A stretch of DNA of 64,000 bases from Herminiimonas sp. (GTDB taxonomy: Bacteria > Pseudomonadota > Gammaproteobacteria > Burkholderiales > Burkholderiaceae_D). A model generated the notes under the pieces. The model made no database searches. It saw only the letters and a list, made by a program, of their open reading frames with translations, and was not told the origin of the DNA. This document shows positions 17,840 through 19,626 of this stretch, one piece after another. Location of the stretch: assembly GCA_027310305.1 (NCBI GenBank), contig DAIDBD010000007.1, positions 124,001 to 188,000 on the forward strand. The letters are read 5' to 3'. Both the position numbers and the translations under genes were made by a program. Numbering within the stretch: position 1 is the first letter of the stretch; every line of letters starts with the position of its first letter.

Positions 17840-17871
17840 CTAAGAGGAATCGAGCCAGCAAAGCGGTTCGC
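17840..17871 (-). promoter_or_regulatory. Candidate ECF promoter P1 (upstream of DUF2892-ecf)
   Basis: Minus strand GCGAACC-N19-TCTTAG, upstream T-tract AAGTTTTTTTC (17879-17889). Confidence 0.7.
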
Positions 17872-17915
17872 AGCCGCCGAAAAAAACTTCATGCGCCCCA
17901 CAGTATGACGCCGCA

Positions 17916-18644
17916 TTAAAAGCGCGTTGTCAATGTAGTCAGCCAGGCCGGAGATACCTCCACCAGCCACGCCTCAAGCGGCTTGTCGGCTCCGCTGAGA
18001 ATCAGGGCGGCAATGGCCACCATGACGGCCCCCAGCACGATCTTTCCGGTTTTTCCTGCCTGCATCAGTTTGCCGCGCACTTTCATCATGGCGGCACGCG
18101 AGAGGTAGGCAAGGCCAACGACCGGCATGGCCGCGCCGATGCCGAAGATGCCCATGAGCAAGGCGACTTGCGGCAGGTGCGATCCCTGGCTGGCCAGCAA
18201 GACGGCTGCGCCGAGTGTGGGGCCGACGCATGGGCTCCAGACCACACCCAATGCCACGCCGATGACGAACTGCCCTCTCAGGCCATTGAGGTTGAGCCGG
18301 GAGATGAAGGTGTTGCCTGCGTCTCCGATCCCGGATGTCGCCGACGCGAAACGCTGCTGTAGGCTGCTGGACATCAGCACGAGCCCGAGTGCCCCCAGGA
18401 TCGCGGCACCCACGTTTCGGAAGATGGCGGCATCAATGCCAATGGCCGCGCCCGCCCAAGCAATCAATGTTCCGATGACGGCATATGAGAGCGCCAGACC
18501 ACTGGCCAGGGCCAGCGGCGCGCGAGGGTGTGCCGCCATGGCCGAGCCCAACAGAATGGGCAGGATGGGCAGCACGCAGGGCGACAAGGTGGACAGCAGC
18601 CCGGCCAGCAAGCCAAAGCCATAGGAGCCGAGCCCGAATTCCAT
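17916..18644 (-). CDS. ccdA: Cytochrome c biogenesis/thiol-disulfide transporter, CcdA family
   Basis: ATG at 18644: MEFGLGSYGFGLLAGLLSTLSPCVLPILPILLGSAM...GVVWSPCVGPTLGAAV. Confidence 0.9.
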   Translation of the reverse strand: MEFGLGSYGFGLLAGLLSTLSPCVLPILPILLGSAMAAHPRAPLALASGLALSYAVIGTLIAWAGAAIGIDAAIFRNVGAAILGALGLVLMSSSLQQRFASATSGIGDAGNTFISRLNLNGLRGQFVIGVALGVVWSPCVGPTLGAAVLLASQGSHLPQVALLMGIFGIGAAMPVVGLAYLSRAAMMKVRGKLMQAGKTGKIVLGAVMVAIAALILSGADKPLEAWLVEVSPAWLTTLTTRF

Positions 18645-19036
18645 CAGTCGGCCGCTTTCTTGAAGATATTCTCGATGCCGGCAGGCGTGGTGTCGCCGAC
18701 TGAGCGAGCGGTTTCCTTGCCGCCCTTGAATGCGATCAGGGTGCTTTGCATATTCACCTTGAATTGCTTGAGGATGGCCTTGTCCGCGTCGAAGTCCACC
18801 GACAGGATTGCCACGTCCTTGTAGGCAAGCTGTTTGGATAGGTTCTCGACGATGGGTTTCTGGGCCTTGCAGGTCGGGCACCAGGTGGCGGACACATCCA
18901 CCACGACTGGCTTGCCGTCGTGGGCCAGCCTGTCGAAGTCTTGCTGGGTGAAGGGCTTGGGCTCGGCAGCGGAGGCAACGGCGGCCCACAGCGTGAGCGC
19001 AGTGATAAAAGGTGCGAGGATGGCGGATCGTTTCAT
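18644..19036 (-). CDS. Periplasmic thioredoxin family protein
   Basis: Signal peptide; VVVDVSATWCPTCKAQKPIVENL (WCPTC). Confidence 0.9.
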   Translation of the reverse strand: MKRSAILAPFITALTLWAAVASAAEPKPFTQQDFDRLAHDGKPVVVDVSATWCPTCKAQKPIVENLSKQLAYKDVAILSVDFDADKAILKQFKVNMQSTLIAFKGGKETARSVGDTTPAGIENIFKKAAD

Positions 19037-19074
19037 GGGGTTCTCCTTGAGATAGGTTGGTCGGGAAAAGTGAA

Positions 19075-19506
19075 TCAACGGGCAGGCTTGAAGGTCTTTT
19101 GCAGCTCGGCCATGTAGGCGGTCAGGTCGGCCAGCTCTTTCGAGTTCCATGGCAGCGGCTTGGCGGCCATCGGCATAACCATGCAAGCCTGCACCATCTC
19201 GTCCAGATACACGCTTTTGCGACCGAGTTGGTCGCGGGCCATAGCCACCGTATGAGGGTACGGCTTGGCGAAGCTGGCCGAGAAGGCGCCATGGTTGGCA
19301 TGGCAGGACGCGCACGCCATGCCGTTGGTGGAGAGCTTCGTGTCGTTAAATAGCAGTTTCCCGGCTTCGGGATCGCCCTTCAAAGGCTTGTAGCCAGGCG
19401 GGCGGACGGTGTCTGCCGCCGGATTGGTTTGTGCGAACGCCATGGCCGATGCCAGGGCGAGCCCGGTGGCGATGAGCGCGCGCCGAGCAGTCGAGTCGAG
19501 TTTCAT
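19075..19506 (-). CDS. Cytochrome c family protein
   Basis: Signal peptide; GKLLFNDTKLSTNGMACASCHANHGAFS (CXXCH). Confidence 0.88.
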   Translation of the reverse strand: MKLDSTARRALIATGLALASAMAFAQTNPAADTVRPPGYKPLKGDPEAGKLLFNDTKLSTNGMACASCHANHGAFSASFAKPYPHTVAMARDQLGRKSVYLDEMVQACMVMPMAAKPLPWNSKELADLTAYMAELQKTFKPAR

Positions 19507-19535
19507 GGGATGCCTCCTTTCATGGTGGTTGCCAA

Positions 19536-19567
19536 GTAAGAGGCGATGGGAGTCCAAAACGGTTCGC
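19536..19567 (-). promoter_or_regulatory. Candidate ECF promoter P2 (upstream of cytochrome c/thioredoxin/CcdA operon)
   Basis: Minus strand GCGAACC-N19-TCTTAC. Confidence 0.7.
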
Positions 19568-19594
19568 GGCCGGGAAAACTTTTTTTCTCCAACC

Positions 19595-19626
19595 GCGAAC
19601 CCGAACACCGCCCTGCCGCCTCTTAG
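19595..19626 (+). promoter_or_regulatory. Candidate ECF promoter P3 (upstream of Cys/Lys-repeat gene)
   Basis: GCGAACC-N19-TCTTAG, divergent from P2 with shared central AAAACTTTTTTTC tract. Confidence 0.7.

What the first reader, a model, noticed from the sequence alone, without database searches (positions are those of the whole stretch)
17840..19626. Three matching ECF-sigma promoters define a local regulon
Upstream of DUF2892-ecf (minus), the cytochrome c-thioredoxin-CcdA operon (minus) and the Cys-repeat/DUF6969 operon (plus) the same bipartite motif occurs: GCGAACC, exactly 19 bp, then TCTTA(G/C), preceded by a T-rich tract. Sites are 17840-17871, 19536-19567 and 19595-19626. The last two are divergent and share the tract AAAACTTTTTTTC. 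This fits -35/-10 elements of the ECF factor at 17050-17580 and implies autoregulation. No anti-sigma gene is evident beside it; the DUF2892 membrane protein is the closest candidate sensor.
Basis: partly seen in the sequence, partly recalled or inferred. Interest (0 to 1): 0.82.

Follow-up and report, generated by a model that had tools for sequence, protein, structure and literature searches.

The report
ECF sigma regulon for periplasmic thiol stress
Three matching DNA switches next to a stress-response sigma factor gene are almost certainly real promoters: the same switch, with exactly the same spacing, recurs beside relatives of this sigma factor in dozens of bacteria, where it heads genes for reducing thiols and, probably, binding toxic metals outside the cell.

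Summary
GCGAACC-N19-TCTTA occurs three times in the 4.0-Mb genome, all in this window (17841-17871 -, 19537-19567 -, 19595-19625 +), with 0 control hits. Around 92 homologues of the ECF factor, the motif lies upstream of the ECF operon in 79 of 90 testable loci. The spacer is 19 bp in 103 cases and 18 or 20 bp in none. The "T-rich tract" is a conserved A/T block (AAAWWTWTTT) like an UP element. Genome scans tie the motif to carriers of this ECF. It also precedes cytochrome-thioredoxin-CcdA, Cys-repeat/DUF6969 and, elsewhere, bufferin (DUF2282/MNIO) operons. So this is an autoregulated local ECF regulon, most likely for periplasmic thiol or thiophilic-metal stress. The ECF is neither ECF16 (NrsF-linked, GTAACC-N16-CGAA) nor ECF41. 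DUF2892 (GFCPMCAMVGRKLDK) was never seen without this ECF in 150 genomes, which fits a sigma-partner role, but several lineages that keep the ECF lack it, so it is not an obligate anti-sigma. Signal, transcription starts and anti-sigma role are inferred. Side discovery: DUF6969, a His-rich protein with no solved structural relative, is repeatedly paired with exported Cys-repeat proteins.

The parts
17841..17871 (-). ECF promoter 1 (-35 GCGAACC, 19 bp, -10 TCTTAG) of the DUF2892-ecf operon
   Evidence: exact motif; orthologous site upstream of the ECF operon in 79 of 90 loci
17880..17889 (-). A/T (UP-like) tract of promoter 1
   Evidence: conserved AAAWWTWTTT block at -18 to -9 before GCGAACC in 126 sites
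17584..17793 (-). DUF2892 / YgaP-like_TM protein, 69 aa, CPMC at the end of the second membrane segment; ECF start 3 nt downstream of its stop
   Evidence: Pfam PF11127 E=3e-16; subfamily conserved next to the ECF
17050..17580 (-). ECF sigma factor, 176 aa, regions 2 and 4 only
   Evidence: TIGR02937 and Sigma70_r2/r4_2 above cut-off
19537..19567 (-). ECF promoter 2 of the cytochrome c-thioredoxin-CcdA operon
   Evidence: exact motif; conserved in homologous loci
19576..19588 (.). A/T tract shared by divergent promoters 2 and 3 (AAAACTTTTTTTC)
   Evidence: sequence; conserved A/T block
19595..19625 (+). ECF promoter 3 of the Cys-repeat/DUF6969 operon
   Evidence: exact motif; conserved
19075..19506 (-). 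exported mono-haem cytochrome c, SoxA/TsdA-type
   Evidence: Pfam PF21342 E=6e-9
18644..19036 (-). exported thioredoxin
   Evidence: Pfam PF00085 E=9e-17
17916..18644 (-). CcdA/DsbD-type membrane electron carrier
   Evidence: Pfam PF02683 E=2e-13
19672..19935 (+). exported Cys-repeat protein (KCAPKC repeats), 87 aa
   Evidence: sequence; no Pfam match
19941..20633 (+). DUF6969 protein, 230 aa, invariant H51 D56 H69 H71 H84 H86 H121 N140 D146
   Evidence: Pfam PF22308 E=1e-52; alignment; fold pLDDT 89.9, no PDB match

Best explanation
The three sites are promoters of the adjacent ECF sigma factor, with -35 GCGAA(C/T)C(G/C)TTT, a rigid 19-bp spacer to TCTTA(G) inside a CCTCTTAG -10, and an UP-like A/T block upstream. 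The factor activates its own operon (DUF2892-ecf) and two divergent operons. These encode an exported cytochrome c, an exported thioredoxin fed by CcdA, an exported Cys-repeat protein and DUF6969. The regulon most likely answers periplasmic thiol oxidation or thiophilic metals (Cu, Hg, Ag, Au): CcdA and thioredoxin restore thiols, the Cys-repeat protein binds metal, the cytochrome passes electrons, and DUF6969 probably matures or loads the Cys-repeat protein. The small CPxC membrane protein DUF2892 may modulate sigma activity but is not its only brake. Shown by comparison: promoter motif, its coupling to this ECF, the operon set. Inferred: transcription starts, signal, enzyme roles, DUF2892 action.
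For: Three exact sites genome-wide, no control hits. Weight matrix: 131 hits at 14 bits or more in 80 homologous loci plus the window, 0 in the reversed control. Spacer 19 bp in 103 cases, 18 or 20 bp in none. A motif lies upstream of the ECF in 79 of 90 loci, down to 39-48% ECF identity. In 22 ECF-bearing genomes (~108 Mb) there are 40 hits against 1 control; of the hits examined in context, one (L132) lies in an unrelated coding sequence. In 141 sampled genomes of the order without this ECF there are only 4 hits, against 5 control hits in the whole sample. UP-like block. Same operon content in many genera. Same motif upstream of DUF2282/MNIO bufferin operons; bufferins are reported to chelate excess copper (PMC12452194, abstract).
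Against: No transcription start or ECF dependence has been measured. Some ECF homologues (e.g. L056, L065-L067, L091) have no recognisable motif nearby. The inducing signal is guessed from gene content. DUF2892 is absent in several lineages that keep the ECF.
Confidence: 0.85

Rival explanations
1. DUF2892 is the cognate redox-sensing anti-sigma factor: it holds the ECF at the membrane and releases it when its CPMC cysteines are oxidised or bind metal.
For: Encoded directly upstream of the ECF with a 3-nt gap. Within 150 genomes of the order, all 7 with this DUF2892 subfamily (E<1e-10) carry it beside this ECF, and none has it without. CPMC or CPAC is conserved down to 39-48% ECF identity. Other small membrane proteins with CPxC (CPVC, CPAC) sit beside the ECF in loci lacking it, e.g. 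L020, L066.
Against: 20 of 21 genomes with the ECF but no adjacent DUF2892 have none (completeness of those genomes not told). N. soli keeps only a membrane-less remnant, and in N. galbum (L010), L027, L061 and L078 the ECF follows ccdA directly. A 69-aa protein has little room for a known anti-sigma domain.
Confidence: 0.35
2. There is no anti-sigma: the ECF is controlled at the level of its own expression or turnover, and DUF2892 is a coregulated effector.
For: No recognisable anti-sigma in the neighbourhoods. Repeated absence of DUF2892 across the tree. ECF41 and ECF33/EcfQ precedents lack a linked anti-sigma (PMC3426412, PMC3420878).
Against: Unchecked positive autoregulation would be unstable; DUF2892 never occurs without this ECF in the sample, unusual for a mere effector.
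Confidence: 0.4
3. The motif is the binding site of another regulator (activator or repressor) and not an ECF promoter.
For: No biochemistry has been done.
Against: Bipartite -35/-10 architecture with rigid spacing, an UP-like block upstream, a typical distance to start codons, and tracking of this ECF across genomes.
Confidence: 0.05

Closest known systems
ECF16: Caulobacter SigF-NrsF, Bradyrhizobium EcfF-OsrA (Cupriavidus RpoQ-RsqA is probably similar; not tested)
   Same: Small regulons controlling bufferin (DUF2282/DUF692/DUF2063/DoxX) genes, or DsbD-like plus periplasmic thioredoxin genes, under metal or oxidative stress (PMC3511200, PMC3420878; for RpoQ-gig PMC10304878, where control by RpoQ is assumed, not shown)
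   Different: Our ECF is 20-32% identical to NrsF-linked ECFs, has no NrsF in the window's genome, and uses GCGAACC-N19-TCTTA, not GTAACC-N16-CGAA
ECF41
   Same: No linked anti-sigma; carboxymuconolactone decarboxylase genes nearby in 21 of 93 loci
   Different: No C-terminal regulatory extension (176 aa); promoter is not TGTCAC...CGTC (PMC3426412)
Bufferin / MNIO gene clusters
   Same: The same promoter motif precedes such clusters in related genomes
   Different: The window has no MNIO, DUF2063 or DUF2282 gene beside the ECF; it carries a Cys-repeat protein plus DUF6969

Membership tests
ECF sigma factors | regions 2 and 4, no region 3 | tested here: met
   TIGR02937 74.6 bits over cut-off 42.9; Sigma70_r2 and r4_2 over cut-off
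ECF sigma factors | autoregulation from an AAC-type -35 promoter | tested here: inconclusive
   GCGAACC-N19-TCTTA upstream of its own operon in 79 of 90 homologous loci; strong comparative evidence, activity not measured
ECF16 (SigF/EcfF) | linked NrsF (DUF1109) anti-sigma | tested here: not met
   no NrsF match in the window's genome; none among the proteins beside the ECF in the window
ECF16 (SigF/EcfF) | promoter GTAACC-N16-CGAA | tested here: not met
   motif is GCGAACC-N19-TCTTA; NrsF loci carry GTAACC-N16-CGAA and not ours
ECF41 | fused C-terminal regulatory extension | tested here: not met
   176 aa, ends shortly after region 4
ECF41 | TGTCAC-type promoter | tested here: not met
   different -35 and -10 (PMC3426412)
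Group of the 2021 ECF reclassification | match to a numbered group model | not testable with these tools
   paper and models not held
Anti-sigma factor (DUF2892) | binds and inhibits the ECF | not testable with these tools
   only genetic linkage shown
Bufferin/MNIO cluster | DUF2282 precursor and DUF692 enzyme | tested here: not met
   absent beside the window ECF; present under the same motif elsewhere

The most novel reading that the evidence does not exclude
An undescribed ECF group senses periplasmic thiol or metal stress through a two-helix CPxC membrane protein (DUF2892) instead of a classical anti-sigma factor, and controls two alternative metal-binding peptide systems from one promoter type: bufferin/MNIO in some genomes, and in others Cys-repeat proteins matured by DUF6969, a His-rich protein with no solved structural relative.
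Probability: 0.2. Interest if true: 0.8.

Novelty: new variant of a known kind. Interest (0 to 1): 0.62.

Why it matters
It gives an apparently uncharacterised, widespread ECF sigma factor a sharply defined promoter that can be scanned in any genome, and a compact testable regulon. It puts unknown families (a DUF2892 subfamily, Cys-repeat proteins, DUF6969) and copper-binding bufferins under one switch, suggesting that DUF6969/Cys-repeat pairs are functional stand-ins for bufferin/MNIO pairs. It also offers a tractable case of an ECF without a recognisable anti-sigma factor.

Tried and rejected
Chance motif: rejected by shuffles, genome-wide controls and spacer rigidity. ECF16 membership: rejected. 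ECF41: rejected by length and promoter. A wider regulon in this genome at 2 mismatches: no enrichment over control. DUF2892 as obligate anti-sigma: rejected by its absence in many ECF carriers. DUF6969 as an MNIO relative: no support; the predicted fold matched nothing in the PDB (best E 2.9). Literature on ECF with DUF2892 or on DUF6969: no paper found; broader searches gave no direct experiment. The 2021 ECF reclassification paper was not held.

Full report
Observation. The bipartite motif is in the sequence as described. GCGAACC-N19-TCTTA has three exact matches in the window and 0 in shuffles. The 4.0-Mb assembly (96.7% complete) has these same three and no others, with 0 in the reversed control. 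The DUF2892 gene should start at 17793: this gives 69 aa, as in most of its homologues, and leaves a Shine-Dalgarno AAAGGAG and the promoter at a normal distance.

Comparative test. 80 loci encoding ECF homologues were fetched, mostly Betaproteobacteria with some Shewanella, Aeromonadaceae and Sphingomonadaceae; more distant ones and plasmid copies were added later. A weight matrix made from exact sites gives 131 hits at 14 bits or more in the 80 loci plus the window and none in reversed sequence. The matrix was built from sites in the same loci, so the reversed control and the independent tests below carry the weight. The refined element is GCGAA(C/T)C(G/C)TTTTG-N11-CCTCTTAG, often followed by GAGG. 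Counting GCGAAYC-Nk-TCTTR for k = 12 to 25 gives 103 at k = 19, none at 12-18 or 20, and 0-2 elsewhere. The motif is upstream of the ECF in 79 of 90 loci, most often about 250-260 nt before the ECF start, that is, just before DUF2892. It persists in operons whose ECF is only 39-48% identical.

The T-rich tract. In 126 sites the ten positions 9-18 nt before GCGAACC are strongly A/T rich, with consensus AAAWWTWTTT. From memory this resembles the distal subsite of the RNA polymerase UP element, which supports promoters rather than operators. That identification is a lead, not a test.

Specificity. Of 150 genomes of the order, 9 carry an ECF hit at E<=1e-16 and 5 of those have strict motif hits; 3 more have weaker sites by matrix. 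The other 141 genomes have 4 strict hits, against 5 control hits in the whole sample. In 22 ECF-bearing genomes there are 40 strict hits against 1 control. Among the hits looked at in context, one (L132) lies inside an unrelated coding sequence; the others head the ECF operon, cyt-trx-ccdA, Cys-repeat/DUF6969, bufferin operons, or exported or membrane proteins of unknown role.

Regulon content. Window proteins: DUF2892/YgaP-like membrane protein, ECF, SoxA/TsdA-type cytochrome c, thioredoxin, DsbD/CcdA carrier, Cys-repeat protein without a Pfam match, and DUF6969. The same sets recur in many genera. In L068 the Cys-repeat domain is fused to the cytochrome and encoded between the ECF and DUF6969; L072 has a similar fusion in the same place. 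This links the window's operons functionally. In L019, L020, L021, L044, L060 and L071 the motif stands before DUF2282/MNIO/DUF2063/DoxX-type operons. [quoted passage not shown]

DUF2892. Its subfamily reads MFYVKNVPxWER...GFCPMCAMVGRKLDK. In the 150-genome sample it occurs at E<1e-10 in 7 genomes, each time directly beside this ECF. Yet 20 of 21 genomes whose ECF lacks a neighbouring DUF2892 have none. L013 keeps a remnant (MLYMKPILGWKCAWHHHKLDRRQ), and in L010, L027, L061 and L078 the ECF follows ccdA directly. On a FastTree of the ECFs the lacking loci fall in one large and several scattered groups. The best reading is a dedicated partner that can be lost or replaced. Other small membrane proteins, some with CPxC, stand next to the ECF in L020, L021 and L066.

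Not ECF16, not ECF41. ECFs beside NrsF genes are 20-32% identical to ours, their loci carry GTAACC-N16-CGAA and lack our motif, and ours form a separate group in the tree (support 0.71). ECF41 has a fused C-terminal domain and TGTCAC promoters. Whether the ECF matches a numbered group of the 2021 reclassification could not be tested.

DUF6969. 44 aligned members share invariant H51, D56, H69, H71, H84, H86, H121, N140 and D146. The predicted fold is confident (mean pLDDT 89.9) and has no significant PDB match. Away from this ECF, DUF6969 is again next to exported Cys-repeat proteins with unrelated repeat units (NPCAAK, GCCAAEGCC, GCCGCCG, SPCGLDG and others) in about ten of some 33 independent loci. 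The count was made by a simple script and by eye. A role in maturing or loading such proteins is inferred.

Confidence. Real, conserved promoters of this ECF: about 0.95. Periplasmic thiol or thiophilic-metal stress as signal: about 0.65. DUF2892 as a direct regulator of the ECF: about 0.35-0.4. DUF6969 as a Cys-repeat maturation factor: about 0.4.

Noticed in passing
16663-16694 (+), upstream of 16764-17027: TTGACT-20 bp-TATCCT with dyad CTGGAGTTGGCTCCAAG: a MerR-family-type promoter (by eye) in front of a CPAC glutaredoxin/thioredoxin-like gene; only match in the window, 0 in shuffles (the pattern was written from this site).
   Followed up: partly
about 20800-24710: By eye a mercury-resistance (mer) operon lies directly beside the regulon; mer-type genes also lie near the ECF in L020, L021, L071 and L084, suggesting a shared mobile metal-resistance island.
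   Followed up: partly
L154-L157, L159-L161, L167, L169, L179, L183: DUF6969 genes next to exported Cys-repeat proteins with unrelated repeat units, in loci without this promoter motif.
   Followed up: partly
L013 around 2960-3035: Remnant of DUF2892 without its membrane segments between the promoter and the ECF in Noviherbaspirillum soli.
   Followed up: no
L091: An ECF 69% identical on Salmonella IncC plasmid p22436-1 and other enterobacterial plasmids, near TVP38/FAD oxidoreductase and DoxX-DUF2063-DUF692 genes, without a recognisable copy of this motif in the stretch.
   Followed up: partly
L009 6583-6840; also L017, L022, L029, L030, L038, L048: A small Cys-rich protein (GDCCVFCSYGSIPCPP) without a Pfam match lies near the ECF in 9 loci.
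   Followed up: no
window sites 17841-17871 and 19595-19625, just downstream of the -10: GAGG about 6 nt after the -10 is conserved (G 47, A 51, G 46, G 44 of 64 at the four positions); role unknown, perhaps in the initially transcribed region.
   Followed up: no
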